Part shown: positions 24,898-47,367 of the stretch, piece after piece
Numbering within the stretch: position 1 is the first letter of the stretch
Layout: the number at the start of each line of letters is the position of its first letter
Assembly (NCBI GenBank): GCA_030063045.1
Contig: JAQSEB010000203.1
Location: forward strand, 372,001 to 436,000
Source of the DNA: Pratylenchus scribneri
Taxonomy: Eukaryota > Nematoda > Chromadorea > Rhabditida > Pratylenchidae
Length of the DNA: 64,000 nt
Reading direction: 5' to 3'
The notes under the pieces: model-generated
Seen by the model: only the letters and a program-made list of their open reading frames with translations
What the model was told of the DNA's origin: nothing
Database searches by the model: none
Made by a program: the position numbers and the translations under genes

Positions 24898-26845
24898 TTA
24901 TTTTCTCTCTTCCTTCGCATCATTTTTATGGGTCATTGCTTCCTTTTTATTTATTGGAACAACTCGGAATATAGGTTTGCCATATTTTTTGCTAATATAT
25001 TGTGGGAGCTTCATTCCAATGGAAATTAACGGCCTTCGGATGAATTTTAGAAGACAAAATGTGCCAAAAATTACGACCAAAAAGTAGAACATTTTGCTGA
25101 AAAAATAAATAAATATTAAAAAATTAATTTTTTGATCCGGATTCCGGAATCAAGTGTACTTTTTGTTCCCTGGTTTTAAAAAATATTTTTCTGTTTAAAT
25201 CAAATAAGAGGGGTTATATGGACTTTTGAATATTTCATCCATTTTGAACTATGATTAATTTTTTTTTGATGCCCAACTTATCGCCGTTTATAACTCATTA
25301 GTCTCATTAAGGACTTGAATAAGCAGTTGTTGACTATCTAATAAAAATTAAATCTGCTTTAATTGATATCCTATTAGTGTATTTTCAATGGTAAGCTTTT
25401 TAGGGACAACTTCATCAATTCTTAACCAGAATAAAAATTAATATTCTTAAATAGCCCAAAAGTTTATTTTCTAATTAAATAACAAAATCATCAAAATTGA
25501 TTCAGTCTCCTTGGTCAAATTTTAGAGAAAATAAATTTTTCTCAGTCACAAGTTGAGGTCAAACTAATATGGATTTTAAAAGTGAGTTGTTTGTCAATGT
25601 TCAGAGATGATAAATTAACAAAAAAATTAGCAAGAACCGAAGTTGACTAACAGTCTCCCCCCTATCTCTTCATAATTTATATTATAAATTTTAAAAGGAG
25701 ATTTTTGCTTCCAATTTTTAAAATTTTCTTACTCTTTAAAATCAATGTGGTCAGTGACAATTGGAATGGAGTCTCGTAAACCAATTCGACGTTGCTCATT
25801 GTGAATTCGTTGGGTTAAAGCCATTGGCACAATGCGGAATGATTCATCCAATTGAACGTGAAAACCGGGCCCAGTGAACTGATTTTGAGAAGAAATTTAT
25901 GTATATATTTTTGTGTTTTTACCGGTTCTCCATTGATTACAGCGCCTGGACGGAAGAAGACGACAAGCATGTTCTGTTCCGTATAATGGAAAATATTGTC
26001 AACCTAGGTGAAAAATAAAATTAAAAAAATTATTTCCATCTATTCCATAACTCTACTTCATCTTATTAATTTTGTGAGCTCTTCCTTTTTTCGTTAATCC
26101 TTCCCCATTTATTTTTGTTATTATATCTCAAGAACTTCTTATTCGGAATGAATTTTTCCTTTTTCTCTTTTAATTTTTCTTCTTCAATTAATTATGAATA
26201 CATATATACTTTCCAAATTTTGTTACAATTTTCAGGACAATTATTATAATACGAATACGCATTCTTAACCTATATTAGGGTGACATAAGTTCTGATCCAA
26301 AAATATGGCGCAGGATATAAAAAAATATGGAAAAAATAAGTCAACATTTTTCAAAAATATGGCTTTTTTAAAAAGCTTAAAATTCCATATAAATTCATTT
26401 AAATATTTTTCCCTTTAAATTTTTCGATTGTTTTCACTTTCTTTAGTAATTTGTCATTACCAAAAATTGTCTCTTAGGGAAAAATTAGACAAAAATAGCC
26501 ATGCGGTGGAAAATTTTAGATAAACATGGTCTCACAGGAGAAAATATGCCCAATTTTCCAAAATTTCAAAAATATGGCAAAACATGGCGAGATAGTCAAA
26601 AATATGACAAATGCCATATAAATAGGGTAAAATGGTCACCCTGCCTATATTTTAAGAGGACAAACTTCTCCAGATGGCAAATAATCTTGCACGAATTGAC
26701 TGAATCTGATTGGTGGTTGTGCCACAATTTGTGCATGTTCAGGCCTCACACTGCTTTGTGGTCGAAATTTCCAGACCAAATAAAAATAAAGCAGAATTAA
26801 GCTGGCGGGAACAACAGTGATGATCAAATATAGAGCCATCTTCAT
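24898..26845 (-). CDS. Copy A, 3' half: FtsH extracellular-domain membrane protein
   Basis: The exons are 26845-26666, 26003-25923, 25878-25733 and 25096-24898, with consistent phases (201 residues from MKMALYL). They encode a membrane helix (LYLIITVVPASLILLYFYLV), a basic-Pro linker, QFVQDYLPSGE, VDNIFHYTEQNMLVVFFRPG, FTGPGFHVQLDESFRIVPM and a second helix. The pattern YL.(S/K)G.V....V......V...PG followed by ..FR......LG....... matches the FtsH extracellular domain of m-AAA proteases (AFG3L2/paraplegin). In those proteins it sits in the mitochondrial intermembrane space between two helices. The AAA+ and M41 parts are absent: the protein stops after the second helix with a Lys/Glu tail. The presequence exons are missing here. 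Their likely remains lie 6.5 kb upstream at 33407-34216, but the splice phases no longer agree. It may be an N-truncated gene or a decaying one. Confidence 0.6.
26277..26643. mobile_element. hAT-type MITE (367 bp) in an intron of copy A
   Basis: The ends read AGGGTGAC on the left and GGTCACCCTG on the right (inverted AGGGTGAC). The flanks are a perfect 8-bp duplication, CCTATATT, at 26269-26276 and 26644-26651. The left end lacks its first C. The interior is low-complexity with repeated AAAATATGG. No transposase. Confidence 0.85.
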
Positions 26846-27339
26846 TTTCCGAAATCCTGAAATAAAATAAAAGATCATATTATTATTGGAATAAATTTAA
26901 TTTACAAAAAATATGGCTGAATTTACATAAATTCTTTAGTGCCGAAAATATTATATTTTTTGAGGCCACTTGGCCATAACTAGGTAATTAGGGCTCAGGA
27001 TTAGGTTCAGGGTAGGATCGAATTAGGAGCTAGGGGTTAGGGATTCCTAAAGAAGTCTGATTAGGCCAAATTATATCGCCTCAAAAATATAATATTTTTC
27101 GACATAAAAAATTTTCGTCAAATTAATATTTTTTTGGAAAATTCCCAGAGTCACAATTTTTGGACCGAATTTTGAAAATCTTCTGAAAATTCACCGAATT
27201 TTCAAAAACAAAAACATTTGGGAAATGCACAATATTTTGGGAATTTTTTTAAAATGGCTTAAATTTCGAAAAGATATTTAAAATTCTTTTCATTTTCATT
27301 TTAAAAATCTAGTCAAAATCTATTGAATTTAAACATTTG

Positions 27340-27665
27340 TTTGAATTTTGAAAATAATTTAATAATTCTGAGCATTTTCAAAATCTTTTAGGACCATATT
27401 TTCAATATCATATTCAAAAAAGTCTGGAAAAATATTTTCAAAATGATAATCATTTTCAAAATCTTTTAGGACCATATTTTCAATATCTATTCAAAATGAG
27501 GAGGAAAATATTTTCAAAATTACAAATCATTTTCAGAATATTGCGAGACATTATTTTCAATATCTAGTCAAAATGGGGAGGAAAACTATTTTCAAAATTA
27601 CAAATCATTTTCAGAATATTGCGAGACATTATTTTAAATATCTAGTCAAAATGGGGAGGAAAAAT
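27340..27665. repeat. Degenerate tandem array, unit about 77-80 bp
   Basis: The block gaggaaaatattttcaaaa...ttttcagaatattgcgagac is present twice almost unchanged (about 27497-27575 and 27575-27655). It is preceded by two more diverged units containing cttttaggaccatattttca. It lies within the stretch that separates the two halves of copy A. Confidence 0.65.
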
Positions 27666-27857
27666 ATGTTAAGAATGAGGATTAATTTCAACAATATGTT
27701 GTTACCTATTTTTTAGTATATGATGAAAATGACCTCTATTATTAAAATATTCTTAATATACTACCTAAATTCATAATATTTTTACCTGTAATAATAAATT
27801 AAAATTTTTATTAAATACTTTATAAATAAATTAAAATTGCATTAAAAATATCATAAC

Positions 27858-30402
27858 TTAATCATGATCAAATGTGTTCATCGGAAAAACATAATTCTTC
27901 ATCTCACCATCATTGCCGTCGTATTGAACCATAAGACTTTTATAGTGACTCAATTGAATAAGATGAAGGTGAACTAAAAATTTGCATATGATTATTTCGA
28001 TAATTTTTCTATAAAATAAACCTGGCCATAATCCTCTTATCTACGAAAGAATTGTAATTTGCAATATAAAGCATTTTGCTGGTGTTCCATCCATTCAAGA
28101 TTTTGCTAGAATTTTGTCCGAGTAATTTATAAACACACAAATTGATTGCAATTGAGAATTCTAGAAGAATAAAATAGATTATTTATCTAATTTTTCAAAG
28201 CTCAATTTATTTTTCACCAAATTTATTGGAATTTTAATAAACTAATATATTAAATTTCATTTGCTCTTCTTAATTCTAGTCTTTATTAGATATTCAAAAT
28301 CTTCCTGTTTTGATTTATATTTTATTTTTCACAATTAAATCCATTTCAAATAAACATTCTCCTAAAAGCCAAATATTTTATCCATAAAACCTTTGTTTTT
28401 ATTATCCCAAAAAATTTTGTATACCCTCAAAATTTGTTACTCAATAACTAGCGTAACCAAAAAATCTTTAATATTTTTGGCCCAAAATTGAAAATACCTT
28501 GGATTTTCCGTAATGTTTAAAAACTTTAAGGTTCGAGTTATGTTAATTTTGATATTTGAAGAAATTAAAGGAAACCTGGACTTTTAATCCTGGTAGCAAA
28601 TCATCAGTGCAAATTTACAATTTTCCCATTTTGCAGCATTTTCAGCACCATTTCCAGTGAAGTGAACAAGATAAAATAATTTGAAAAATAAAAAATTTGT
28701 ATTATTTAAAAACTTACAATTACTTAAATCAATTAAGTTGAAGCCCATAATCTCGCTAAAATTTCTTATTGAAGGTCAATTGCAGCGAATTCTAAAATGG
28801 TTCTTCTTTCTTCCTTTTCACTTATCATTTGCTCATTAGGGAAGTTTGATCTTTTTAAATTATTGAAATTAATTATAATTTAGAATAAAATGACCTGATT
28901 AAATCTTGGTATCCTTGATCCACCATTTCCAATGAGAATTTAAAAACATCGCATAATATTGAGAATTTTTGATTGAGAATTTTTGCTTATATCACCAAAT
29001 TCTTGAAAATTTAGAGTTCTCATTCATTCTTCAATTTGTTTTAAAGCCGAAGGTGTATGTGTAATTTTTGCTCCAACAAAACTCTCAACTGAAGTTTAAA
29101 AATAAATAGTAAAAATAAATAAAAAAGTTACGAAAAAACAAGAATTAGAAATGGAAGAGCCATATTTTTTGCTGCAATTGACCAAATATAAATGCAGATG
29201 TGCTTTTTGGGTCCAATAGAATTCACTAAAAAATAATAGATTTTTATCAAATAATTGGAACATAAAAAACCTTAATTTCGCATTTTTGGAAAATATATGC
29301 CGGCATTCATAGAATTTCTGTGCTATGTTATCAGCAATAGCTTCAATGACCCGAACATAAAAATAAACAAAATTATTATAGTAATTAATATATTAAACCT
29401 TGAATTTTAGACTATGTATTTTGGGTCTTACTTCTCTTTTCGATAATTTCATGAATTTAGCCAAATTGGTCTAGAGTTCATCCCAGTCCGGATTAGTTTC
29501 ATCGGCACTAAATATTTAATAATTTTACTGTTTTTTTTAAAAAATCTTACTATACTTCTTATTAAATATCACCATCGAGCAAGAGTCCGATTCGAGTTCA
29601 TTGACTTCATCGATGTTCATAAAAATCAAAGAGCTGGTATCAGACATTCCATCTTCTTCTTTGATTTCATATATCATTTTGAATTTTTTATTTTTTAGTT
29701 TTAAAGATTCATTTTTTAAACCTTGAATTTCTCGTCCATCTCCATTGCAAATTTTCGATCCTGAAGATTTTCCAAATCTTTTATTGGGTTGGCGAGCATT
29801 CCATCCTTTAAATTTTTATAAGCTTTAGTGTTTAATTGAAATTACCTGAGAATTATTTTCGTTGCAGTCTTCTTTCTATGGTAGTTAGTGTCATAGAATT
29901 CCTTATCATCACTCGATTTGATGTTTTCGAAGACCATAAAATTTTTGTAAATATTTCTATTTTCTTAAACCTGCATATCCTCATATTCAGAGTTCCATTC
30001 GCAAGGCAATTTGTAAAGATTGTAGAAGATCAGACATGCCAGAAAAACATTGTTAAATTCAATTCTGGTTGTGCCTTCTTGGACAGCTGTGAAGACTTAT
30101 TGACTTAAAATCTTCGTTTAAAATATTTTTATATTACTAATTAAACCTGTTAATGTATTATGTTTGGACGCTTTCCTGTGACTCTCCTATGCTCTGAGAT
30201 TTTTGGACTATGGATGATTTGCAATCGCCATGAACGCTTCGAAATTTCCTGATCATCAGCAAGAATTGAGTAGCCACCAAATTTCGAACAGGAAGCATTC
30301 CTCCAAGATCAGGCAGAACATTCTCTGAATCATAAGCATTCTTTAATCTGTACTTACTACTTTTATTATGTTTAAAATTAAAAATACCTCAATTATATCC
30401 AT
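27858..30402 (-). CDS. Unrecognised multi-exon gene, partly degraded
   Basis: I do not recognise the family. Many short coding-like exons can be read on the minus strand. They begin near 30402 (MDIIE), then LKNAYDSENVLPDLGGML (30345 down), FNNVFLACLIFYNLYKLP (about 30070), DGMLANPIKDLENLQDRKFA (about 29800), KMIYEIKEEDGMSDTSSL (about 29680), VIEAIADNIAQKFYECRH (about 29345), VDQGYQDLIR, VHFTGNGAENAAKWENCKF (about 28665) and LNGWNTSKMLYIANYNSF. The last exon ends KNYVFPMNTFDHD at the stop 27858-27860. An in-frame TAG follows DETNPDWDEL near 29477, and the first two exons do not agree in phase, so it may be a pseudogene. Composition is ordinary for a soluble protein, with no signal peptide or clear membrane helix. 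It lies on the same strand as copy A, inside the gap that splits it. Confidence 0.4.
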
Positions 30403-30871
30403 GCTTAAATAAATTTTGACCAGAATTCTTTGATAGAATTAAAATTTGTCCGGAGAATTCAATTAATAGAATTTAATCTTTTATTTAGACTTCGAAAATT
30501 TTATTTCAATTATTTTTATTATTTGTTTTGTTTTTATCGATGTTGATATTTGTGAATTTCTTCCAATTCTCTGACTATGTTATCTCTCACTTTTCATGTA
30601 TGATTTATATAGTTATTATTTCTTATTAGCTCATAAATAAGATATTTTTGCAAAAATATCTACATAATAATTGCTTACTTGTTTTTTTGATACTTAAAAT
30701 TCTGAAATGTAAAATTATAATATTAAAGGTTATAAAACCTTTGTTTTTAATACATGATGAGAAAATTAATAAAATCGTATAAAATTTCTCAAATAAATAA
30801 TCTAAAATATTTTACAGTCTAGTTTAATTCTCTAAATATTTTGCAAATTCTAAAATGAAAAAAAGTGAAAA

Positions 30872-31556: not shown

Positions 31557-33406
31557 ACAAGAATTCTCAGGTTTTTTATTTAAAGAATAAAATATAAGAA
31601 TTTTTAAGAAATATTCGCAAAATTTATAGGAGTTTTGAACAATTATAACAATGCTCAAGGAAAAAGAAAAAAAGAATCTTTTTTCATGGCAAAAACTTTT
31701 TTGCAATGCAGGTTTCTTTTCATTTTCTTCCAATTTTATGGCAATAAAAATTTATAAATTTCAATTTGTTTAACTTTTTAAGAAATTAAAGGTTTCCACG
31801 AATTTAAAAAAAACTAAGAAAGATTTTATGGATAATTTTAGGTTTTTATAAAATATTTTTAGAAAAAGTTGGATATCAAAATTTTAAAAATTTAATGATT
31901 TGAACATAAAAATTTAATAAAGACTCAAGTAAACAAGAGTAAATGAAATGTAAAACTTTTTTCTAAATTCTCAATAAAATTAGTACTGTGAAAAAAAACC
32001 TTAGATTGAGCTTTGGAAAATTGCTTAAATAACCTTAATCTATATTATATGTCTAGATCTTTCAATAAACATTGTGGAAAAAGTCTAGCAAAATCTCTTG
32101 GATGTATTGAACGGCGTCAGATTCAATTTATTGACACATAATAAGTCTTAGCCAAATGATAAGAATATGGCCAGGTTTATTTGATAAATTATAAAAAAAT
32201 ATTCATATGTAAATTTTTAGCTCGCCTTCATCTTCGATGGTATTGTGGCCAAAGAATGATGTCTCAAATGGACTGGGAAGACGATATAAAGAAAAATGTG
32301 TTTTTTTCTGATCGATGAATAAATTTGATCATGTTTAGGTTTTTAATGAGAATTCTTTTATTAAATTATTAAAATTGTAATTTCATTCTAACAAATAGAA
32401 ATTTAAGTAACAAAATTTTGGAATAAAAATCTTTATTTAAAAAACACTTCATTTCAATTAAAAATATTGTCAATTCTCATCTATTTAAAATCTGATAAAC
32501 AAATTCTGGCTATAATTTCAATTTTACATTTTTTATTAATGATTTTAATTTCTCCTATTTAAAGGAGAAAAAAACAAATTTTGAAAATATTCTAAAAATT
32601 TATTAATTTTTGAAAAGATTTTTGGTAATTTTTTTTCAAAAAATTTTGAAAATTTTTTAGAAAATGATTGTGAATATTAAATAGTTTTTCAAAATATTTT
32701 TAAAATCGTATCCATTTTAAGGAGCATTTTGGGTCATATTTTCAAAAGATTCTGAAAAGGTATATGAAAATAGTTTTCAAAATTATTAAATTCTGAAAAT
32801 ATTCCTAAAATTTTGCTATTTTCAGAATATTCTAGAAATTTATATATTTTCATTTTATTTTGAAAATACGAATAATTGTGAGTAGATTTTTTCCTATTAT
32901 TTTCAAAATCTTTTGAATTTATTTTGACCTTGAATTTTCAGAATTTTACTCATTTTAAAAATATTTTGACAATTTATATCTTTTCAAAATATTTTGACAA
33001 TTTTCTCATTTTTACAATATTTTGAGAATTACATCAAATTTTCAACATATTTTTGCATCTATTTTTTTTGTGACTCCGGGTTAATATTATCTCTCAAATT
33101 TATATCATTAATAGCTAATAATAAAATAATCTGCTCTTTAATTCAATATAAAAATTATCAAAATTTGCTCAGTTCTAAATAAATTAGTATAACTGGCACC
33201 AAGTTGGGCCAATCTATATAGGTTTTAGGGACAAAATGTATTATGTCATATTTTTTATAATATTTTTAGACGCTAATTTTTAAATAAAATTCGGCAATGA
33301 CTTCAAAGAATTTTAAATAATTAGAAATCCTTTTAAAAATTAAGCATAAATTATTTTTAAATTACCGAATATTTTGATCATTCTCAATTCATCCTTATGC
33401 ACAAAC
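31557..33406. other. Low-complexity AT-rich stretch, no gene seen
   Basis: 32550-33060 is dominated by variants of ttttcaaaatattttgaaaat, similar in style to the array at 27.4 kb. No coding frame or RNA gene was found. Confidence 0.4.
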
Positions 33407-34216
33407 ATTTTCATTTTTATCATCGTTTTTTTCGTTTTCTTCTTCCGTCCAACCAAGGGTTTCGGTTTGTTCAATTTTATAGCCGCTTTTTGCATATTCA
33501 TTGTTGAAATTTTTTATGAGCTGTTTGAATAGGCGATCATCCATTTCTTTTTTGGCCTTTTTTTCCTTCCCCAAACATTCGACAAATTTCGCTTTGAATT
33601 TGGTTGCCAATTGTTGTGGATCCATTTTTTCCGCATCATCCTTTTCATTTGCCGAATATCGAAGCCCGCGGGAATCTAAAAATTTTTAATTGAAAAGACA
33701 ATTAAATTTCCGAAAAAAACTTGAATGAAAATGTTTAAAAAGGTTAACATTTTTCAGTACTTTGTCCTATGACCTATAAACATTATAATCAATTATAATT
33801 ATAAGCAGAGTCCTGCATGAAAAAAAAGTGCCAAAATAAAAATATGCAATTTTTCGGTTTTTATTGCATTTTTGAAGGACAATTTTTACCAAAAAAAAAA
33901 GGCGAAAATATGCGAAAAAAAAGTTAGCCCTAAAATGATATGTCATAAAAAATTCATTTATGTAATGTACCCAGAAACCCATTTAATGTTTAAAAAACGG
34001 ATAAATATATCAAATTAATGAACTTTTTTGAACTAATTATTAATTTGTTTATTAAATTTCTAATAAATTTAAAAATTTACGTATAAGAATGCATTTTTTA
34101 TTGGCCATATTATCCAAGAGAAGGCAGCATTTTGCATTGTTTGTTGTTTTCATTGAATGAAATGCTCGAAATGGATGGCAAAAAAACAGTAAATTGCAAT
34201 TTCGTTGGTAGAACAT
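33407..34216 (-). pseudogene. Copy A, 5' half: presequence and linker exons without a body
   Basis: The first exon (to 34081) keeps the family block MFYQRNCNLLFFCHPFRAF, with the same donor and phase as copies B, C, D and F. The 5' part holding the usual MYCLLK start is lost. Exon 2 (33675-33407) encodes HSRGLRYSANEKDDAEKMDP, then a charged helical region ending YAKSGYKIEQ, the family's conserved linker. After NDDKNEN it meets a stop within a few codons, and neither nearby donor joins copy A's membrane exon (26.86 kb) in frame. The two halves look like one gene broken by the intervening 6.5 kb. Confidence 0.5.
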
Positions 34217-34433
34217 TTGTTGCTTTGGTTGACAACTTCCTGAATTTTTGTATTATTTAGATCTTATTGAAAAATTAAAAAAAAATAAAAAGTGGAATTC
34301 CATTAAATAAACAAATAAATAAATAATCATTAATGTGTTAAAAAATAAAATAAATTTTATAAATAATGCAAAAATTTCTTAAATAAAAAATCAAAATAAA
34401 TTAATCCATCAACAAAGTTTTATTCTTCCATTT

Positions 34434-36188
34434 TTATTTTCTCTCTTCCTTCGCATCATTTTTACGGGTCATTGTTTCTTTTTGATTTATTGGAGCCACT
34501 CGGAATAAAGATTTGCCGTATTTGTAGCAAAGAAATCGGCAAGTCAAGAACACTATAAAATACAAAAGAAGAAATGTGCCGAAAATTGAGGCAAAAAAGT
34601 AGAACGCTTTTCTGGAAAAAAAATAATATAAAATTTGTTTTTCAATGAACTTTAATTAAGTCCTAGCTTCGTGAAGTTGCTTTTGGCTCGTATTTCCGCC
34701 ACTTGCGGACGAAACGGTTTGATGACGCTGACGGTAAAATTGATGCGGAATTGTTTATGCCATTTTATTTGCCATAAAATTAGCTGCAAAATGACATCAA
34801 AAGCTTTGACCATTATTGAGTATTCACCGAGTTATGGCCAAAAAAAACAATTTTAATTAAACTAACGATTTTTTGGCCATAACTCGGTGAATGCTCAATA
34901 TTGGTCAAAGCTTTTGATGTCATTTTATAGCTAATTTTATGCCTAATTAAATGATATAAATAATGCCACAGCAGTTTTACCACGATCGGCACCAAACCGT
35001 TTCATCCGCAAGTGGCAGGCGGCTAACCTTATGTATAGTAAAAGAACCTCCTAGAATGTCTATTTTTAATTAACTTACGTATTGAAATCAACTTGGTCAG
35101 TGATAATTTGAACAGAATCGCTTAAACCAATTCGACTTTCCTCATTTTGAATTCGTTCGATTAAGGCCATTGGCACAATGCGGAATGATTCATCCAATTG
35201 AACATGCAAACCGGGTCCATTAAACTGAATTTTGGTATAAAATTGTTAATTTATTTTGTATTTATATTAGTATTTATTTACTGGTTCATCCTTGTCATTT
35301 GCAGAATTGGGGGAGGATGAGTTTGTCGTGATTTCTTCTATCTCATTAGTCTCCTTGTTTATCCTGTACCGAAGTCCGCGAGAGTCTAAAAATTCATATT
35401 GAAACAATGAATTTAAAAAAAAAAATATTGAATAAAAATGTTAAAAAAAGGGGTTAAGTTTCATTAGTATTTTTAACCTAAACCAAAAAACCTTATACTT
35501 AAATAAACCAAAAAAAGGTTATATTTAATCGATTGATCTCATCAATACACATCATTTGATAATGATTTGGCATAGGTTTAATCAATCGGTTTAAATCGTT
35601 TAATACCTTATAATTTTTACCAAAACCATGACCAAATTATATGATATTCGATGCGTCTTAACGAACTCTCTCCATTGTCATATATATGGATTGTGAATTA
35701 GGAAAAATCTTGGTTTTTGTCAGGTCTACATCCGTGGTGTTAGGGGATATCTGAGGTGATTTTCACCCATCATATCCATTAACCTATCTTGAATGAAGAA
35801 TTACCTTAACTTAAACCTGATGAACTTATAGGGGGGAGGGGGGGGGGAAGACTCTTTACTTTCCAAAAAAGCGGATGTAAACTCGACAAGTAGCCAAATC
35901 TTCCTCAAACCATTACTTTATATACCTTTAAATGACAAAAAATTTACCAAAATTTGTTTAATTAATTTTCAGAATAAATTTACGTGTAAGAATGCATTTT
36001 TTATTGGCCACATTATTGAAGAGAAGGCAGCATTTTGCATTGTTGATTGTTTTCATTGAATAATGTGCTCGAAATGGATGGCATAAAAACAATAAATTGC
36101 GATGATTTCTATGGTAGAGCATTTGCTGTTGACTTTGGCTGGCACTTCTCAAAAAATTGGTTGAAGAAATTTTTAGAAGGCAATACAT
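34434..36188 (-). CDS. Copy B: family member with core exons deleted in frame
   Basis: The exons are 36188-35984, 35385-35282, 35224-35079 and 34611-34434, giving exactly 211 codons including the stop (210 residues). The first exon (205 bp) is the shared presequence-like region (MYCLLKISSTNFLRSASQSQ), rich in Ser, Arg, Asn and Leu and poor in acids, as expected for mitochondrial import. Exon 2 starts HSRGLRYRINKETNE and ends NDKDEP, a fusion of the linker start with the last residues of the usual core exon. The charged linker, first membrane helix and the YLPSGE/HYPEQ core are therefore gone. FNGPGLHVQLDESFRIVPM, the second half of the FtsH-like domain, follows, then a C-terminal helix and the ETMTRKNDAKEERK tail. 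Every phase agrees despite the deletion, so a protein could still be made. It may act as a short variant, or be functionless but intact. Confidence 0.65.
34698..35017. repeat. Foldback element (320 bp) in an intron of copy B
   Basis: Both ends read GCCACTTGCGG, and the arms of about 150 bases are imperfect reverse complements, sharing for example AAAATTAGC and ACATCAAAAGCTTTGACC. They meet near 34855. No target duplication is clear. It would form a long hairpin if transcribed. Confidence 0.8.
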
Positions 36189-36450: not shown

Positions 36451-39368
36451 TTATCCTTTTGAATTTATGGGCACGACACGGAACCTCCGCTTGATAAATC
36501 GTTTTTTTTCAAAACGCACCAAAGGCCTTTGCAGGAGCATCATGAGTAAAAATGCGCCAACGTAATAGATCATTTTGCTAAAAAACAATTAATTAATTAC
36601 TAATAATGGAATCTTATTTTTTTGTGCAGTAATGCGCTAATCTATCCTATAATTGGTAATTAGGCCAAGTTTCTAGATCAGAAAAAAAAACTACTTTATC
36701 CTTAAATTTTTTTGATTAATTTTACAAAAATCTAGGAGGCTTTGTGGCTGTCAAAAATCTGAGGACAAATAACTGATATGTACCCCTATAATTTTTTAGA
36801 GTGAAATACTTCGGTCTTCGAATTTGCAGAAAAAAAATGATTGAAACTGTAGAAAAGTTTATAGCGGTTTAGCATTTTGTCCTAGCCCCCAAAACCATAT
36901 ACTATACCCATTCGATAGATCTCTTCGAAACTCATCGATTGGATATATAACTTGCCATGTTTTAATTGGTTTTGAACCAAAACCCATAAAATGATTTATC
37001 ATTTATCAAAGAGATCTATCGAATGGATTTAGGGCAAATATTCTGCATTTTTAATATTCTTTTATGGAAAATAAATATTTCCCAAATAATTTTCTTATTA
37101 GACTAGATGTCTTATTCAGGATGCAGATAAAAAAACATCGACTCTTCCCGATTTTTTGAGATTTTGACAACTTAGCCAACGGCAATTCCGAATTGCTAAG
37201 TGACAACGGTAGAAAAATATACAGAATAAAAGTTTTAATTAAATTTTTATTGAATTTTAATTTTTTAGGTGCCAAATTTTGCCTTTTCAGATATTTTTGC
37301 TATAAGCTTGCCAAAGTCAGACTTATCGGCACCCTAGTCTTTCCTCAATTTTTGAATATAAAAATGTTCATACAATATTCCCTGCTTGTCAATTTGCTCA
37401 GTGACAATTGGAATGGAGTCTCGTAAACCAATTCGGTGTTCCTCATTGTGAATTCGTTCGATTAAAGCCATTGGTGGTATTTTGCGGAATGATTTATCCA
37501 GATGAACATGCAAACCAGGCGCATTGAACTATTTTTAGTAGAATTTTTATTAATTTTTTTTGTTTCTACCGATTCTCCATTGATTAGAGCGCCGGAACGC
37601 ATGGAAACAGCAAGCATATTCTGCTCCGGATAATAAAAAATGTTGTCAATCTGCGAGAAAAATATCAAAATTATTTATTAAAAAAATCGATTTGACAGGT
37701 TTGAAACTATAAGTTATGAAGAGAAAACTTAAATTTGAGCTTTAAACCGATTTAAGCCATTTCTAAAAGAATTAAATATAGCGTCCGAATTAACATTTCC
37801 CAACTATATCGAACTTGTCGAATCAAAATTAATCATAAATTAGTACTCTAGAAAGGAAAAGGATGTCCTGCCTTAAATTGAAATTTCCTAGACTAATTCG
37901 ACCATGCCGAGTCGAATTAGCCCACTTTCAAATCTGTAGGATGTCTAGAAACCGAGTTCCCGAAACAGGCTACCCTGAAAACTGGCCATCCCCAGGAATG
38001 GCTAATTTTCCCATTGGCCATTCCCGGGAATAGCCAATTTCCCAAAATCGCCTGAAACATATCCGTTTTAAATCCCTACGTCCATTTATTCATTTTAGGT
38101 AAGAAAAACACAAACCTCTCCAGATGGCAAATATTCATTCAAGAATTGTTCAAATGTAATTGGTGGTTGTGCCACAATTTGTGCATGCTCTGGCTTTACA
38201 TTGCCATTACTGGCTGGACGAAACTTCCAAATTAAATAGAGCAAAAGAATGGTCGGAATGAAAGGTACAAATAACATTGGAGCAATTATTCCAAGAACTC
38301 TTGATAAAACTGCAATGAAATGAAATTAGAGGTCATATATTATGTAATTGATTTTCGTTACCAATTTCAAATTCCTTCCGCTCTTTTTTATCAGGTATTA
38401 AAGTTGATTCGAGTTGTTCCTTCAGTTGAAATAGAACTTCAAAAGCATTATTGGCATATTCAATTTTGTAGCCACTTTTTGCATGATTTTTGTTGAATTT
38501 GGCCATGAACTCATTTAAAGTGCCAGGTAATTCGTTGAACACTGTTTTTCCGTTCCTCATATTGTTCCGAAATTTGCTTAGGAATTCGAACAAATCCAAT
38601 TGGAATTTGGAGAAAATTTGTTGGGAATCCATTTTGTCGGCGCCATTCTCATCATCGGTAGAATTAGAAGTATCTGGCGTCTTTTGCTCGTTAATTTTGG
38701 TCTCACTGCTGCCAACACTGTGTCGACGAAGTTCGCGTGATTCTGAAATTTTTTTAATGATCAAAAATATTACATATTTTTTTCTTTTTTGTTTTAAATT
38801 AGCTGCTTTTTATACATCAGAGATTAGCCTACATAGAAATTTCATGGACATTTTTTCATTGAATTAAAATTAAACCCAAAACATATTTATAAAACCTTTA
38901 GTAAAATAATTTTAAAAAAGTTGTCTAGACAGTTATGAACAAAATCAAAAATTCCTTAACATTTGCTATTTTTGTCATAATTTATTAGTTATTTTTCTAA
39001 TAATAAATTCATCCCAATTTATCAGGACTATACAAAATTGTAATGAATTTGATAAATTTTAAGGCTAATATTTTCTAGAAAAATTGAATTTATGTACAAA
39101 ATTCGGGTAAAAACCTCAACCATTTCAGTATATTAGCAGAAAATTTAATTTTCATAAATTTACGGATTAAAATGCATTTTTTATCGGCCACATTGTCCAA
39201 GAGAAGGCAGCTTTTTGCACCATTGTTTATTTTCATTGAATGATTTGCTCGAAATGGATGGCATAAAAACAGTAAATTTCGATGATTTCGATGGTAGAAC
39301 ATTTGCTGTTGACTTTGGCTGGCATTTCTCAAAAAATTGCGTGTAAACATTTTTAGAAGGCAATACAT
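36451..39368 (-). CDS. Copy C: complete AAA-less m-AAA-protease-like membrane protein
   Basis: The exons are 39368-39164, 38742-38362, 38309-38116, 37650-37570, 37528-37374 and 36577-36451. Together they make exactly 1143 bases, 380 residues. Residues 1-68 are presequence-like (MYCLLKMFTRNFLRNASQSQ). Residues 69-195 are a charged linker with the family signature NHAKSGYKIEY. Helix one (FVPFIPTILLLYLIWKFRP) follows. The FtsH extracellular-type domain runs TFEQFLNEYLPSGE, NIFYYPEQNMLAVSMRSGA, FNAPGLHVHLDKSFRKIPP, NEEHRIGLRDSIPIV. Helix two is MIYYVGAFLLMMLL, with a basic tail (RRFRVVPINSKG). In AFG3L2/paraplegin the ATPase would follow helix two. Here the gene ends, and no Walker motif or HExGH exists anywhere in the cluster. 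Predicted location is the mitochondrial inner membrane. It could assemble with, or compete with, real m-AAA subunits. That role is inferred. Confidence 0.75.
36840..37045. repeat. Palindromic repeat family, copy 1
   Basis: The left arm has cccattcgatagatctcttc and the right arm carries its complement (gagatctatcgaatggattt). It contains the family blocks ggttttgaaccaaaaccc and taatt. It lies in an intron of copy C. Confidence 0.6.
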
Positions 39369-39585: not shown

Positions 39586-42500
39586 TTATGGCCATCTTGA
39601 ATTTAGAGGAACGGCCCGGAACATCCGCTTGCCAAATTGTTTCAGTGTAAAACGTCTCAATAGTTTGCTCGAGAATATCATCAGAAAAAATGCACCCAAA
39701 TAGTAGAGCAATTTGCTGAAAAAATAATTTTAAAATAGATGGTATTTAATTTGGCGGAAAAACATTGAAAATGGCGAAAAGATTATAACGGTTCAATGGT
39801 TTGTCTAGACCCCCAAGCCGTATACCCATTGGATAGATCTCGCCAAGTCGCATCGAATGGTATATATATTGTCGTGGTTTGATCAAAAATTAAGGGTTTT
39901 AAACCACTTAAAACGTTCTATGGGTTTTGGTTCATAGCCAATTAAACCATGACAATTTATATACCATTCGATGCGTCTTGACGAGCTCTATCCAATGGTA
40001 TATGATTTGTGAATTTTGGCCAAACCTCTGAGCTGGTATAAACTTTTCGCAATTTTCAATGTTTTTTTTCGACATTTTCAATGTTTTTTTCTACATTTTA
40101 AATATTTCCCTTCCCATTTAAAATATTCAAGACATTAATTTTCTTTTGAGAAAACTTTTTATCGTCAAACTTATAATGGTTTAGGAAGTGATTTTCACCT
40201 ATTAAACCATTTAAAATTTTTATAAGGCTTATTAAGGTGCATCAATTCATATATAATTTATCTCTTTTAGTTTAAACCTGAATGAGTTATACAACCATTT
40301 AAACCATTTCATATTTTTTGTTTAAAACTAGTTTAGTTTCAGCCAAACCAGACAAATTATGGAATTGATGCGCTTAATAAGCTCTATAAAAATGTTAAAT
40401 GGTTTGTCAGGTAAAAATCGCTTCTTTAAACCGTTATAAGTTTGGCCGACAAAAAGGACACACATTTTTGTTTATTTATTATTCAATTTGGAATTATAAA
40501 AAATTCCATTGGATCAGGTGCTAGCATCTTTTTAAATTTTTTTTTTTCATTTGGAAATTTATTGGTGGGTTTAAATATTGAATCAATTTTAAGTAATTAA
40601 TAAAAATTTACGTTTTTAAAACATTTTGGAGATGGACTTTTGGAACGGGGCCTCGTTCATCATCACCATTTCGATGCATCTCTTCTTGAATTCGTTGGGT
40701 CAATAATTTTACCATTTCGCGGACAGAATGTTCCAATTGAACATGCAAACCGGGTCCAGTGAACTATTTTTTGTGGATTTTTATATTAATTTTTTTATAT
40801 TTTTTTACCGGTTCTCCATTGATTACAGCACCTGGACGGATTAGGACGACAAACATGTTCTGTGCCGGGTAATGAAAAACATCAGTAACCTAAGCGAAAA
40901 AAAATAAGGAATTAATTAAAATTACTTTTTTGGGAAGAAATATTTCCATATTCTTATAATATTCCCATGAACAATTTTTCTTAGCCTCTTCCTCTTATTA
41001 ATTCCATGAATTCTTCTTCATTTTTTGTAAACATTTTCTCTTGTTAAACCCAAGAGATGTTTCTTTTCTCAATTCCACAAATTAATTCTTTCTACTCAAT
41101 CAGAAGAGGAAGAAAGCTCATAGGTTTTTGAAAAAGAATAGCTCAAATAATTAAGAAGAGTTCATCAATGCACTTTATATTCCAAAAGTACTGAAAATGG
41201 CGAAAATATTATAATGGTTCAATGGTTTGTCCTAGGCCCAAAGCCTGTAGCTAATTGGTAGCTCTTCGAGAAACGTCGATTTGATACATAATTTTCCATA
41301 GTTTATTAAAAATTTAAGTAAAGGTATTAAACCGTTTAAACCATCTTATGGTTTTTGGTTCAAAACTAAGTTAAAAATTGGTTAAATCCAAGTAAAATCA
41401 TTATCAAACAATGCATATAGAAGGGATCTATCGATTGGATTGATGGTTTTGTCGTCTAGAATATAAAACTGAACAATTACAAATCATTATTTAAATCCTT
41501 TCGCCATTTTCAATACTTTTTCGACTGTTTTTTTTTCTCAATTTTATTTTTTTTTATCAATAATATCTCACAAACCTCTCCAGACGGCAAATATTCATTC
41601 AAGAATTGGTTGTATGTGATTGGTGGTTGTGCCGCAATTTCGGCATGTTCCGGCTTTACATCGCCATTGCTGTGCGGACGAAATTTCCAGAAGAGCAAAT
41701 AAAAAAGTAATAGCATGCAAGTCGGTTCAAAATAGAAAATCAGCAAAAATGTAATCCAATATTCTATAAAAAAAATCGATATATAGATTTTTTATTGATT
41801 TTTCTACTTACCGGCATCCAATTTGACCCATTCAATTCTCCTTTGATTTGTTATTCCTTCGTAAATTTGTTCCAGGAATAATTTTATGGGAAGTGTAATT
41901 TTGTAGCCACTTTTTGCATTTTCTTTGTTGAATTTGTACAGAAACAGGTTGAATTCATCATAGAAATTGGTAAATTTTGTCATAAGGTTCATCTGTGTTC
42001 TGTTCTCTTTTCGAAATTTGCTTAGGAATTCGGCCAAATTCAGTTGGAATTTGGAGAGCAATAATTTTTGAGGATTGTCATTCCCATCAGTAACAGCAGT
42101 GGAGGACTTTTTTGTCTTGATTCCACCAGCTTTGTTTTGAAATCCATTTGATTCTGAAATTTTGTATTTATAAATATTATTAAATATATAAATATGATTA
42201 AATTTTGAGCGGTTACCCGACTTATGCACTTTTTCCATTATCTCATGGAATCTTTTACCACAATAGCCTTTTTAAAATAAAATGATCGGATCAAATTATA
42301 ATTGACCATAAAATTATAACCAAAAACAATAAAATAAGCCAAAATTGAGCTCTTTTTGGTCATAATTTTTGCAATTTCCATGAAATCTACTAATTCTTCC
42401 TCAAAAATAAATTCATCCCAATCAGTGGAATTTAAAATGGTACATAAATTTGTTTTAAATGATATTAGTAAAAATTCAAAACCTCATGAGTACAGCATAA

Positions 42501-42740
42501 TTCCAGTAAATTTACGAAATATAAAAATTATTTACGGATTAAAATGCATTTTTTGTTGGCCAAATTATCAAAGAGAAGGCAGCATTTTGCATTGTTGTTT
42601 ATTTTCATTGAATAATATGTTCGAAATGGATGGCATAAAAACGGCAAATTGCGATGATTTCGATGGTAGAGCATTTTGTGTTGGTTTTGGCTGGCACTTC
42701 TTAGAAAATTGCTTGTAAACATTTTTAAAAGGCAATACAT
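39586..42740 (-). CDS. Copy D: complete AAA-less m-AAA-protease-like membrane protein
   Basis: The exons are 42740-42536, 42153-41812, 41763-41576, 40889-40809, 40763-40612 and 39715-39586, summing to 1098 bases (365 residues) with all phases agreeing. It follows copy C domain by domain: a presequence-like start (MYCLLKMFTSNFLRSASQNQ), a linker with NKENAKSGYKITLP, helix one (CMLLLFYLLFWKFRP), TYNQFLNEYLPSGE, TDVFHYPAQNMFVVLIRPGA, and FTGPGLHVQLEHSVREMV. The second half of the FtsH-like domain is more diverged than in C (MHRNGDDERGPVPK replaces the RIGLRDS stretch). Helix two (KLLYYLGAFFLMIF) is followed by a basic tail. Intron positions match copy C exactly, proving duplication. No ATPase or protease domain is present. 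Palindromic repeats sit in its introns. Confidence 0.75.
39765..40051. repeat. Palindromic repeat family, copy 2
   Basis: Starts gaaaagattataacggttca and ends ggtataaacttttcgc, its near complement. The arms also share ccattggatagatctcg and tataccattcgatgcgtc. It lies between copies C and D. Confidence 0.7.
40165..40455. repeat. Palindromic repeat family, diverged copy 3
   Basis: Has cttataatggtttaggaag on the left and cgttataagtttggcc on the right, with internal matching blocks (aaaccatttaaaa, gcatcaattc). It lies in the last intron of copy D. Confidence 0.55.
41195..41510. repeat. Palindromic repeat family, copy 4
   Basis: Contains tattataatggttcaatgg and tttgtcctaggcccaaagcc on the left, with complementary blocks to about 41510 (gatctatcgattggattgat). 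It lies in an intron of copy D. Confidence 0.6.
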
Positions 42741-43007
42741 TTTGGTCTTCGAATAGTAGAAAAATAATAAAAATATAACAAATAAAAAAGGTATGCTTTT
42801 CAATTCAATGAATAAAATAGTTATTGTATGAAAAGAATTGAATTAAATTTTATAAATAACTTTCAAAATTTCAATCAATACAATTATAAATTTAAAAAAT
42901 CAATAAATTAATAAATCAATAAATTAATAAATCAACAAGATTAATTATACAATTTTTATTTTATTTCTTCTTTCAAATAATTTTTTGAGAATTTCTTTCT
43001 CGTAAAC

Positions 43008-44487
43008 CTAGTTTTGATATAACTCGCTGGACATTGCCTCTTTTTGATTTTGTGAGTCTCGTTTTCGTAAACCACTTCGACGTGCCTCATTCTGAATTCG
43101 TTGCATTATTTCCCATGGTGGCATATCATTGAATGATTCTGGCAATTGAACATGCAAACCGGGCGCAGTGAACTGATTTTTAGGGGAAATTTAAGTATTT
43201 ATTTACATTTTTGTGTTTTAACCGGTTTTCCATTGATTACAGCACCTTTACGGATAAGGACGGCAAGCAATTTCCGTTCTGGATAATGGAAAATGTGATC
43301 AATCTACGCAAAAAAAATAATAAATTTATTAAATTTTTGTGAAGAAATATTTTACTTATTTAATTTCCACTAATACTTCTCATCTTTAATACAATAAAAG
43401 CAATTTTTTCTTTATACCATCAGTTTAGAAGAGTTGTTTATTGGAAAAGATAAATAATTCAAGGATATTTAATACTTCCAAACTTTTAGTTTAGTTCCTG
43501 AATTGATATTGCTAAATCCATTATTTATTAATATACATTTTCATGATTAAAAAATCTCAAACCTCTCTAACAACGGACGGTAAATAGTCTTTCAAGAATT
43601 GGTCGTATGTAATTTCAACAGGCTTCTCCTTTTCTTTCACAACATTTTCGCGCTGGCGAGACTTGTTAAACTGCCAGAACAAATGTACAATCACAATTAT
43701 ACCGATGAAAAACACAATCTTCCCGAAAATTACTAGAACAACCAAATATTTTGCTAAATAAAGTGAAAATATTTTAACCTGCTTTCTCTTGGTTTGCATA
43801 AAAATCATATTCTGATTGACGAAAACTTAAAATAATTAAAATCAAAATGTTAATAATTTTACACAAACTTTTGTTCTGCCGGTCTGCTGCCGGGCCGGTT
43901 TTGCCGTTTGCCAAATTCGGTTTGATCAGTGTCCGATGTGGTCGCTTTTGGTGCTCGAGAATGATCATATTCCTTTCTTCTTTTCGAATCGCTGAGCACT
44001 TCATATGCTTCGTTGATTTCTTGACTTTTTTCGTTGGCCCCTTTCTCTTTGCTCACATCGGGAATCGGGATGATATTTTTTAATCCGCTTTAATTTATAG
44101 AAATTAAATATTTATAAATAACTAGAGATGGGACAGAACTTTCTAGTCGAAAAATCCCTCTTTAATTTATGCTTTTTTTCAAAAATATGGCATAAACCGG
44201 ATTTCGTAAGCTCAAAATTAATTTTTGGTTTTTTGGCTTGTTCGTTTTTTCAATGAAAACTTGCTCAAAAATTATATCAAAAACATGTAATAAATACTCA
44301 AAAGAATTATATTTTTATCATTAAATCTCAAAAAAAATCAAAACCTAAAAATCCGGTTAAAAATAATAACCTTATTGTGAGCTTTTTTGATTTCCTTCAA
44401 CTTTGCTGTCTTTGGAACACCCAAAATTTTATAATAATCCTTGAGCCGAATGATGGTGAAATGTAGAAATCGACGCGATATAAGCAT
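43008..44487 (-). pseudogene. Copy E: J-domain fused to FtsH extracellular-type domain, frameshifted
   Basis: J-domains stimulate Hsp70 through their HPD loop. The exons are 44487-44371, 44087-43869, 43825-43779, 43753-43563, 43303-43223 and 43172-43008. Exon 1 starts MLISRRFLHFTIIR, a typical mitochondrial presequence, then DYYKILGVPKTAKLKEIKKA. Exon 2 gives RIKKYHPD, then in another frame KSQEINEAYEVLSDSKRRKE. The frames are split by a tandem 7-bp repeat, TCCCGAT TCCCGAT, directly at HPD. Without one copy, all six exons agree in phase and would encode 270 residues. After the J-domain come a membrane helix (LVVLVIFGKIVFFIGIIVIV), YDQFLKDYLPS, HIFHYPERKLLAVLIRKGA and FTAPGLHVQLPESFNDMPP. There is no second helix. 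One proposed intron (43778-43754) is only 25 bp. The frameshift may be a real mutation, an allele or a sequencing error. Confidence 0.65.
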
Positions 44488-44723
44488 TGATTGGCAATTT
44501 TTCCTAAAATGAATTTTGTATTTTTAAGTATTAACAAATAAAAAAGGTAAGATTTTCAATTCAATGAATAAATCAATGTGTGAAAATAGAATTAAATTTT
44601 ATAAATACCTATTTGAAAAAATTTACGACGTTTTCAATACAATAAAATATAACAATAAATTAATTCACCAACAAAACAAAAATATTTTTTCTCGATTTTT
44701 ATTTTTCTTCTTCCAAATCATTT

Positions 44724-47367
44724 TTACCGGACATTTTCTTCTTTTTGATTTTTTGAGTCTCGTTTTTGTAAATAAATACGACGTTCCTCTTCTTGAATTC
44801 GTTGCATTATTTCCCTTTCTGACATATTGCGGAATGATTCCGGCAATTGAACATGCGAACCGGGTGCTGTGAACTGATTTTGAGAAATAAAATTGTTTCA
44901 TTGTGTTTTTACCAGTTTTCCGTTGATGATAGAGCCTTCATGGAGGAGGATAAGAAGCAAATTTTGTTCCTGATCCTGGTAATGAAAATAGTGGGCAATC
45001 TACATAAAAAATTGTTTTTATAAAGATATTTTCTTTATATTTACATTAATAATTCTTAAACCAATGACTTCTTTTCCTTCTTAAATTAATGAGTTCTTTT
45101 AATTCTATTTGATCAGATTTCAGAAGAGAAAGAGGATAGTTTGAATTTTGGGTGCTAATTTTGCCCCAAAGATTAGGCATTCTTTTGCCGAAAAATCACA
45201 TTCTTTTGTCGAGAGTTTAATAACTTGTTACTACTTGATCCTAGACCTCCAAACCTTATACCCATTTATAGAGCTCATCGAGACGCGTTGATTGATATAT
45301 AGTTTGTCGAGGTCTGGTTCAAAACTAAAAGAGTTATAAACCAAAACCCAAAACACGATTTAAACGGTTTAATACTTTGAATTTTGGGCAAACCGTGACA
45401 AATTATACCTAAATCGATACATGTTGGTGAGCGCTATAAAATGGGTATTAGGTTTTGGCTCTAGGATCAAGCATAACTAATTATTCAAGAAAAACCAATC
45501 TTTCGACAAAAGAATGTGATTTTCGAAAAGAAGTAATTCATTAGTCAAAAAAAAATTTACTCGTTGAATTTTATTTTAGATCCCGAAATGCTAATTACAT
45601 TTGCCATTCCAATTTCATTTTATATTTAATTATATCATTTTCATAATGATTATAAAGAGCTCAAACCTGTCCAGACGGTAAATAGTCTTGCAGGAATTGG
45701 TCGTATGTAATTTTAACAGGCTTCTCTTTGACTTTTACAATATTTTCATGCGGCGGGCGAGACTTCTAAAACTGCCAGAACAAATTAGAAAAGTATAATC
45801 ACATTCATCAAGCCCAAACCTGTCCAGGGAATAAATAATTCTGGACGCGCTGTTGAATACGCCAGTTTATGTACAAGCTAATTGGAAAAGATATTATAAT
45901 GAAAATTATGATGATGAAATATTCTTCTTTGGTGATTGGGTCAAAATTGCGGTCACGAAAACTTAAAATAATTATGTAATTAAATCGAAATATTAATTTT
46001 TCGCAAACATTTGTTCTGCCGATCTGCCCGGTCTGAACTGAAAGTCGGCTTCGGTCCCTGATGTGCAATGGCTAACTAAAATTAATCTGGTTAAGTTTTT
46101 TGTAAATTTTGTTAAAATATTTTTCGGTGCCTTTTATATTAAGTTTCCCTCTAAAAGTGCCGAAATTGGTAAAATAAGTCAAAAAATTATGTAAAAATAT
46201 TAGTACTACTATTGCAGTTTACGGGCTGTAAGGGAAAAAGGATGATGAAGATGAGGATGATCGTCTTCGTCATCATCTTCGTCATATTCCTCATTATCAT
46301 CCTCTTCATTATCTTCTTCTTCGTCATCCTTCCATCCCATAAACCGCAATAATACCAAAATATAAAAAAGAAATATTCAAAAACATTTATTTATCCACTC
46401 AAAATTTCACCAAAAACTAAAAATCTAGTCTCTAATTCTCAAAAATCAAACGAAATTCGTTAAGTTTTTTTTCGCTTACTTGCTTCAATTTTCCCGCCTC
46501 TCTCTATTCCGGGATGGAATTTTTCAAGAAATAACATTATGGGATGTTCAATTTTATAGCCGGTTTTTGCATTTTCTTTGTTGAATTTTTCGATGAATTT
46601 GTCTATTTCTTCATATAATTTGAAAGATGCAGTCATCGGGTTCATCTGCTTTCTAACGGCATCCTTTCGAAATTTTTCTATGAATTCGGTCACATTCAAT
46701 TGAAATTTGGACAACAATTTTCGTGGGTCCATTATTTGTTCGGTGCCATTCCCATCATCCGCATCCGAAACCGAAGTATCAGTAGAGGAAGTATCGGCCG
46801 ATTTTTCTGTCTTGCTTCTGCCACTAGCTCTGTGTCGAAGTCCGCGTGATTCTGAAATTTCGTATTGCTAAATATTTTATTCGACATAAATGATTTTTTA
46901 TCCAGTCAGAAACCGAAAACACTATCTTTTTTTTGGGTAATTTTTCTGCCTTTTGTAATAACTTTTTTGCGTAATTCTTTTTCCATTCGATTCATCCAAA
47001 TAAGAGAGCTATGGAATCGTATCAAATTTAATTTGTTTCGGTTTGCAAAATTCGTTTGTGTGGATTTTGATTTTAAATATCAATATTTTAAAAGAATTAA
47101 AAACCTCATTACTCCAGCATAATGGTAGAAAATTTTAAAATAAATTCAGTAAAATTATTTACGAATTTTGATGCATTTTTTATTGGCCAAATTGTCCAAG
47201 AGAAGGCAGCATTTTGTATTGTTGTTTGTTTTCATTGAATGATGTGCTCGAAATGGATGGCATAAAAACAATAAATTGCGATGATTTCTATGGTAGTACA
47301 TTTGATGTTGGCTTTGGCTGGCACTTTTCAAATAATTGATTGTTGACTTTTTTGGAAGGCCATACAT
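44724..47367 (-). CDS. Copy F: presequence, linker and FtsH-type domain with J-linker remnant
   Basis: Seven exons (47367-47163, 46851-46480, 46057-46009, 45961-45820, 45765-45667, 44999-44913, 44873-44724) sum to 1104 bases, 367 residues, all in phase. It starts MYGLPKKSTINYLKSASQSQ like copies B-D and has the linker signature NKENAKTGYKIEHP. It then carries a 49-bp exon (TEADFQFRPGRSAEQ) that corresponds to the stretch after the J-domain in copy E (QNRPGSRPAEQ). It is thus a hybrid of the presequence type and the J-domain type. A membrane helix (FIIIIFIIISFPISLYINW) follows, then YDQFLQDYLPSGQ, HYFHYQDQEQNLLLILLHEG and FTAPGSHVQLPESFRNMSE. It ends KNQKEENVR without a second helix. A TAG that would interrupt the ancestral reading before KSRPPHEN now serves as the splice acceptor. 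Confidence 0.7.
45178..45540. repeat. Palindromic repeat family, copy 5, nested in an outer palindrome
   Basis: The outer arms read attcttttgtcgagag and ctttcgacaaaagaatgtga. Inside are the family blocks (cctagacctccaaacc, attgatatatagtttgtcg). It lies in an intron of copy F. Confidence 0.65.
46237..46335. repeat. GAT/ATC simple repeat, partly palindromic
   Basis: A run of gatgaagatgaggatgat followed by cgtcttcgtcatcatcttcg and similar triplets, flanked by near-inverted ends (gggctgtaagggaaaaagg and ccttccatcccat). It lies in an intron of copy F. Confidence 0.6.

What the first reader, a model, noticed from the sequence alone, without database searches (positions are those of the whole stretch)
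24898..47367. Tandem family of m-AAA-protease-like proteins that lack the ATPase and protease
At least six minus-strand copies share a presequence-like first exon (205 bp in copies B, C, D and F), a linker with A(K)(S/T)GYKI, a membrane helix and a split FtsH extracellular-type domain (YLPSGE, then HYPEQNML.V...PGA, then F..PGLHVQL..SFR). C and D end after a second helix, exactly where AFG3L2/paraplegin would enter the AAA+ domain. Exon lengths and phases show that B, C, D and F are intact frames, so this is an expanded gene family rather than debris. It could be a set of inner-membrane adaptors or dominant regulators of the true m-AAA complex.
Basis: partly seen in the sequence, partly recalled or inferred. 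Interest (0 to 1): 0.9.

Follow-up and report, generated by a model that had tools for sequence, protein, structure and literature searches.

The report
Tandem genes for headless mitochondrial proteases
A nematode genome carries a gene family, at least partly under purifying selection, that keeps the membrane anchor and intermembrane-space domain of a mitochondrial quality-control protease (paraplegin type) but ends before its motor and protease, so the products are probably non-catalytic partners of that machine.

Summary
Window 24898-47367 (minus) carries six tandem copies. Two (42740-39586, 365 aa; 39368-36451, 380 aa) are complete six-exon genes: basic presequence-like exon, linker, TM1, small domain, weakly hydrophobic TM2, basic tail, stop. 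Four of six have a 205-bp exon 1; the other four copies are partial, interrupted or lack the usual TM2 exon. The small domain is the m-AAA intermembrane-space domain: a profile of three window copies has human paraplegin's domain as top PDB hit (E 8.1e-6; 13 rows 2.1e-6; reversed control none). Three introns match this genome's modelled paraplegin in place and phase (0, 0, 2); the one before TM1 does not. Single sequences miss Pfam FtsH_ext, as does that paraplegin. One query gives 59 exon matches in 38 places genome-wide. The 42.7-kb gene is conserved on three other contigs, dN/dS 0.21-0.40. No AAA+/M41 match was found in the window. So: a truncated paraplegin-type family under purifying selection in a nematode. 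Action on m-AAA or prohibitin is inference. Expression, localisation and other species were not testable.

The parts
47163..47367 (-). copy A47, exon 1 (205 bp, presequence-like)
44728..46851 (-). copy A47, exons 2 to second domain exon (46851-46480, 45926-45847, 45765-45667, 44999-44913, 44873-44728); open frame; no TM2 exon of the family type found
44371..44503 (-). DnaJ-type exon between copies A47 and Dj44; joins A47's phase-2 end and the next exon from 44087 with GT/AG junctions in one open frame up to HPD, stop soon after
   Evidence: Pfam PF00226 E 9.1e-11 for the two-exon piece
43071..43781 (-). copy Dj44: TM1 exon 43781-43572, domain exons 43303-43223 and 43172-43071 onward; no family exon 1
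42536..42740 (-). copy C41, exon 1 (205 bp)
41812..42153 (-). copy C41, exon 2 (linker with KFNKENAKSGYKI)
41576..41763 (-). copy C41, exon 3 (TM1 and start of intermembrane-space domain, ends ..YLPSGE, phase 0)
40809..40889 (-). copy C41, exon 4 (domain, ends ..INGEP, phase 0)
40612..40763 (-). copy C41, exon 5 (domain, ends phase 2)
39586..39715 (-). copy C41, exon 6 (TM2, basic tail, stop)
   Evidence: stop shared by four contigs
36451..39368 (-). copy D38, complete, 380 aa: exons 39368-39164, 38742-38362, 38309-38116, 37650-37570, 37528-37374, 36577-36451
34434..36188 (-). copy E36, 210 aa: exons 36188-35984, 35385-35282, 35224-35079, 34611-34434; open but without TM1 and first domain exon
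33395..34249 (-). copy F, 5' part (exon 1 remnant without the usual ATG, exon 2)
24898..26856 (-). copy F, 3' part: TM1 exon 26856-26666, 26003-25923, 25878-25733, TM2 exon 25096-24898

Best explanation
The genes encode truncated paraplegin-type m-AAA paralogues: an N-terminal presequence and linker, TM1, an intermembrane-space domain of the FtsH/m-AAA kind, TM2 and a short basic tail, with no AAA+ or M41 domain. SHOWN: domain homology, intron correspondence, truncation, copy number, purifying selection on the genes tested. INFERRED: that they arose by partial duplication of a paraplegin-type gene up to and including its TM2 exon; that they sit in the mitochondrial inner membrane; and that they act non-catalytically through the partners this module contacts in m-AAA, namely neighbouring m-AAA subunits and the prohibitin scaffold, thereby changing subunit composition, substrate entry or prohibitin caging of the true protease. 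I put about 0.9 on the identity and about 0.35 on this mechanism.
For: Profile of three window copies against the PDB: paraplegin IMS domain 9rk6_B top, E 8.1e-6, profile positions 1-85 of 94; 13-row profile 2.1e-6, with AFG3L2 2lna second at 0.34; reversed profile 0 hits. AFG3L2 (recalled letters) and two paraplegin sequences of this genome outscore all 2000 shuffled decoys. Paraplegin introns after SGE (phase 0), after the NGTL/NGIL site (phase 0) and before TM2 (phase 2), as modelled, coincide with those of C41. C41 on four contigs: six exons and their GT/AG sites kept, dN/dS 0.21-0.40, bootstrap upper bounds 0.36-0.69. Relative on C59/C23: dN/dS 0.24, interval 0.09-0.56. First 50 residues of C41: 7 K/R, 0 D/E. 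Review passages: m-AAA N-terminal and TM domains are dispensable for assembly and proteolysis but essential for membrane substrates in vivo, and the IMS domains are predicted to bind prohibitins (PMC12994072, passages; also PMC5438985, passages).
Against: No expression, localisation or interaction data. Single sequences give no Pfam FtsH_ext hit. The intron before TM1 differs: phase 1 in the family, phase 0 in paraplegin. This genome's own paraplegin is only weakly similar to the family (11 bits; E 0.13, under the inclusion threshold), so descent rests on introns plus similarity to human paraplegin; AFG3L2 may share the introns, but its 5' half was not found here. TM2 is weak: a 19-residue scan at 1.6 finds only TM1 in C41 and in the C59 relative, and over 16 residues TM2 means are 1.24-2.44. 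The C22 copy of C41 has a one-base exon deletion. One pair of dispersed copies has dN/dS 0.81 with an interval past 1. In purified prohibitin samples m-AAA was only substoichiometric and did not copurify stably (PMC12624060, passages). If the N-terminal parts are dispensable for assembly, the module alone may not enter the hexamer.
Confidence: 0.6

Rival explanations
1. Neofunctionalised inner-membrane proteins of m-AAA descent that no longer touch m-AAA or prohibitin and do something else, for example a lineage-specific membrane scaffold or a stress or development factor.
For: I saw no counterpart in paraplegin of linker exon 2 (114 and 127 codons in the two complete copies, with a KFNK..AKSGYKI-like motif; by eye only), yet it has the lowest dN/dS point estimates in the six C41 pairs (0.13-0.27, against 0.15-0.44 for TM1 to TM2; intervals overlap). 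Divergence between groups is large.
Against: The domain keeps enough paraplegin-like sequence to be found at E 8.1e-6.
Confidence: 0.25
2. Decaying partial duplicates of an m-AAA gene (pseudogenes).
For: In the window one copy is interrupted by about 6.5 kb, one lacks TM1, one lacks exon 1; the C22 copy of C41 carries a one-base deletion; of six pairs of dispersed copies two have intervals reaching past 1 (0.62 and 0.81).
Against: C41 and D38 are fully open with GT/AG junctions; exon identity exceeds intron identity in all six C41 pairs and dN/dS intervals lie below 1; dN/dS intervals also lie below 1 for the C59/C23 gene (there exon identity 96.2% and intron identity 206 of 216 are alike) and for four of six dispersed pairs.
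Confidence: 0.07
3. Full-length m-AAA genes whose AAA+ and protease exons were missed or lie far downstream.
For: Exon-by-exon searches can miss short exons.
Against: The stop after TM2 is shared by four contigs; further copies follow in tandem; no AAA+/M41 match in the window at E up to 10, with 10 and 6 rows in positive controls; no match on C203, C22, C16 or C135 among the 14 M41 or the 55 AFG3L2-N-half matches.
Confidence: 0.02
4. An unrelated two-helix membrane family resembling the domain by chance.
For: No Pfam or NCBIfam match of single members above threshold.
Against: Profile E values, reversed control, and three coincident introns with a paraplegin gene.
Confidence: 0.04

Closest known systems
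Paraplegin (SPG7), m-AAA protease subunit
   Same: TM1, IMS domain (9rk6_B, E 8.1e-6), TM2; three intron positions and phases of this genome's modelled gene
   Different: No AAA+ domain, no M41 protease; a linker exon with no counterpart seen; intron before TM1 in another phase; tandem and dispersed multi-copy
AFG3L2 (m-AAA)
   Same: Same architecture up to TM2; second PDB hit for the 13-row profile (2lna, E 0.34) and above decoys
   Different: Weaker similarity than paraplegin, not hit by the 3-row profile; no catalytic part
YME1L / i-AAA and bacterial FtsH
   Same: FtsH superfamily; the AFG3L2 IMS domain has a fold strikingly similar to the FtsH periplasmic domain (PMC5438985 passages)
   Different: i-AAA has one TM (same passages); no FtsH or YME1L entry appeared in my PDB profile searches
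Inactive FtsHi proteins of plants and other pseudoproteases (recalled, not searched)
   Same: Non-catalytic relatives of a protease
   Different: FtsHi keep the AAA+ part (recalled); here both AAA+ and protease are absent

Membership tests
m-AAA protease subunit (paraplegin/AFG3L2) | IMS domain of m-AAA type | tested here: met
   Profile to 9rk6_B E 8.1e-6 (3 rows) and 2.1e-6 (13 rows), reversed control empty
m-AAA protease subunit (paraplegin/AFG3L2) | Two TM helices | tested here: inconclusive
   TM1 clear (2.02 in C41); TM2 not found by the 19-residue scan, 1.24-2.44 over 16 residues in six family sequences, paraplegin 1.89
m-AAA protease subunit (paraplegin/AFG3L2) | AAA+ ATPase | tested here: not met
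   0 tblastn matches in window, controls positive; stop after TM2 in four C41 copies
m-AAA protease subunit (paraplegin/AFG3L2) | M41 metalloprotease | tested here: not met
   14 M41 matches in genome, none on C203, C22, C16, C135; 0 in window
Pfam FtsH_ext (PF06480) | Score above gathering threshold | tested here: not met
   0 of 13 members; full-length C41 none, C59 relative 13.5 bits versus 25.5; this genome's modelled paraplegin part also fails
Mitochondrial inner-membrane protein | Imported to mitochondria | not testable with these tools
   Only composition: 7 K/R and 0 D/E in first 50 aa of C41
Paraplegin descent | Shared intron positions and phases | tested here: met
   Three of three introns from the domain to TM2 in C41, two of two in the C59 relative; the intron before TM1 differs in phase. 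Models only, no transcripts; whether AFG3L2 shares them is unknown

The most novel reading that the evidence does not exclude
The nematode has evolved a multigene set of catalytically empty paraplegin-like subunits or caps that plug into the m-AAA/prohibitin assembly from the membrane and intermembrane-space side, giving many alternative regulatory faces to one protease.
Probability: 0.3. Interest if true: 0.8.

Novelty: new variant of a known kind. Interest (0 to 1): 0.6.

Why it matters
m-AAA proteases are known as two or three conserved catalytic subunits. A conserved, expanded set of subunit-like proteins that keep only the membrane and intermembrane-space module would be natural separation-of-function versions of that module, whose job (substrate entry, prohibitin contact) is still debated. 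It also gives a candidate mitochondrial innovation in a nematode; how widely it occurs is untested.

Tried and rejected
Pfam and NCBIfam on single sequences: nothing above threshold. PF06480 on the whole genome by six-frame search: 0 matches, uninformative because the true m-AAA genes are split by introns too. Two searches of the large protein collection (C59 relative and C41): no hit at E up to 10; that the collection holds few nematode proteins is my guess, so distribution in other species stays open. phmmer of the C59 relative against PDB: top hits OxyR at 0.074 (chance), paraplegin sixth at 0.81. A1 profile against ORFs of the M41 loci: paraplegin first but only E 0.13, next matches 0.52-0.77.

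Structure prediction was not attempted: the tool states that it takes only proteins read letter for letter from the DNA, and these need splicing. Species naming: SL1 shows a nematode; a polyploid root-knot nematode is my guess from genome size, low G+C and contig sets. I looked for a telomere-repeat sequence in PMC10844300 to test that; the passages shown did not give it.

Papers: searches for paraplegin+Meloidogyne (0 papers), FtsH_ext+nematode (0), AFG3+Meloidogyne (1, a fungal genome paper), m-AAA paralogue lacking nematode (6), truncated FtsH family expansion (5), paraplegin/IMS domain/prohibitin (15 of 80 listed), prohibitin/SPFH/AFG3L2 (3), polyploid Meloidogyne (10 of 59 listed). Of these I saw listings with abstract starts, and passages of PMC12994072, PMC5438985, PMC12624060, PMC10630426 and PMC10844300. 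I saw no report of such a family; that is limited to these searches.
Full report
WHERE IT IS. The window is contig C203:372001-436000 of a 227-Mb assembly in 276 contigs. The SL1 spliced-leader sequence (recalled letters) occurs 227 times and its reversed control never, so it is a nematode. Polyploidy, and a root-knot nematode, are my inference from sets of similar contigs and the composition.

THE COPIES. Reading the minus strand and spliced modelling give six copies. C41 (42740-39586; exons 205, 342, 188, 81, 152, 130 bp; 365 aa) and D38 (39368-36451; 205, 381, 194, 81, 155, 127 bp; 380 aa) are complete with GT/AG junctions. A47 is open through the domain but its TM1 exon needs an extra 81-nt intron in the model and no TM2 exon of the family type was found. 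E36 (210 aa) is open but lacks TM1 and the first domain exon. Dj44 lacks exon 1. Copy F is split by about 6.5 kb, and by eye I could not join its exon 2 in frame; its 3' part is open.

WHAT THE PROTEIN IS. Alignment A1 holds 13 domain sequences: three window copies (C41, D38, F), nine of the 16 loci modelled (L029, L030, L032, L033, L034, L038, L039, L040, L046) and the relative L043. The seven other loci, and A47, Dj44 and E36, were left out as partial, near-duplicate or irregular. Its profile finds paraplegin 9rk6_B in the PDB at 2.1e-6, positions 1-84 of 91, then AFG3L2 2lna at 0.34; five weaker rows are unrelated molecules. The three window copies alone give 8.1e-6, no AFG3L2 hit, and a next row of 0.098. 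A reversed profile of 7 rows gives no hit at E up to 10. With shuffled decoys, AFG3L2 scores 14.7 and this genome's paraplegins 11.5 and 11.1 bits; the best of 2000 decoys scores 8.0.

INTRONS. In this genome's paraplegin as I modelled it (L020 joined by hand, L019 aligned to that model, L021 aligned only from TM2 onward) introns fall after SGE (phase 0), after the NGTL/NGIL site (phase 0) and before TM2 (phase 2). C41 has introns after SGE (0), after NGEP (0) and before TM2 (2). The relative on C59 (L043, 306 aa, five exons) has the first and third. The intron before TM1 does not match: phase 1 in the family, phase 0 in paraplegin. The match over the domain supports descent from an m-AAA gene truncated just after its TM2 exon. 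AFG3L2 could share these introns; I could not check, since the only AFG3L2-type locus found (C10, L015) begins at the Walker B region. A search with the human AFG3L2 N-half gave 55 matches, none near that locus and none above 64% identity; apart from the YME1- and paraplegin-type loci I did not identify them.

NO CATALYTIC PART. The 14 M41 matches in the genome fall on C10, C8, C59, C31, C98, C55 and C109. None is on C203, C22, C16 or C135, where the clusters lie. In the window the AFG3L2 catalytic half has 0 tblastn matches at E up to 10; control loci L020 and L015 give 10 and 6 rows.

FAMILY SIZE. One domain query gives 59 exon matches at E up to 1, which group into 38 places on 15 contigs: seven on C203 (six in the window), six on C22, seven on C16, five on C135 and 13 elsewhere, the C59 and C23 relative included. 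The weakest may be chance, and the tool calls its counts lower bounds. A small tree of 20 sequences chosen from these groups the four C41 sequences (support 0.995) and four D38-type sequences (0.999) across contigs, so duplication preceded separation of the similar contigs; several other nodes are weak.

SELECTION. C41 on C203, C22, C16, C135: exons 92.0-94.1% identical, introns 74.9-89.4%, exons higher in all six pairs. dN/dS 0.21, 0.22, 0.26, 0.30, 0.39, 0.40; bootstrap upper bounds 0.36-0.69. Exon 1 alone 0.37-0.73 with wide intervals that pass 1, as a loosely held presequence would show. One exon in the C22 copy has a one-base deletion. The relative on C59/C23: 0.24 (0.09-0.56); there exon identity 96.2% and intron identity 206 of 216 are alike. 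Among four dispersed copies (TM1 to TM2 only), six pairs give 0.15-0.81; the three pairs with L038 are the highest (0.45, 0.62, 0.81), two of them with intervals past 1. D38, A47, E36 and F were not tested for selection.

HOW IT MAY WORK. From review passages (PMC12994072; PMC5438985): m-AAA N-terminal and TM domains are dispensable for assembly and proteolysis but essential for membrane substrates in vivo, and the IMS domains can contact prohibitins, which restrain the protease. Passages of PMC12624060 add that m-AAA did not stably copurify with prohibitins, so the contact may be transient. A free membrane/IMS module could therefore compete for prohibitin, sit beside the hexamer or replace a subunit's membrane part. 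This is inference; neofunctionalisation away from m-AAA is the main rival.

VERDICT. A real truncated paraplegin-type family with selected members; new variant of a known kind; function inferred.

Noticed in passing
44503-43990 (minus): A DnaJ-type exon lies between two family copies. It continues copy A47's open frame at the same phase-2 junction where other copies take their TM2 exon, all junctions GT/AG; the J domain matches Pfam DnaJ up to HPD (9.1e-11), then a short tail and stop. A possible fusion of the module with a partial J domain.
   Followed up: partly
L015 (G000:C10:3088500-3098000), about 6280 onward: The only AFG3L2-like locus found starts at the Walker B region; an unrelated same-strand frame ends about 400 bp upstream, and no 5' half of AFG3L2 stood out among 55 matches. 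Assembly fault, pseudogene or real split is open.
   Followed up: partly
L020 1538-3291 (paraplegin): This genome's paraplegin has a strongly diverged intermembrane-space domain: the truncated family's profile scores it 11 bits but human paraplegin's domain 30.9.
   Followed up: partly
27000-33300 (minus): About 6.5 kb separating the two parts of copy F, with several open frames of unknown kind.
   Followed up: no
49058-51757 (minus): Two frames with the string EEVIGIDSEWGP, looking like a 3'-5' exonuclease motif (recalled, not searched).
   Followed up: no
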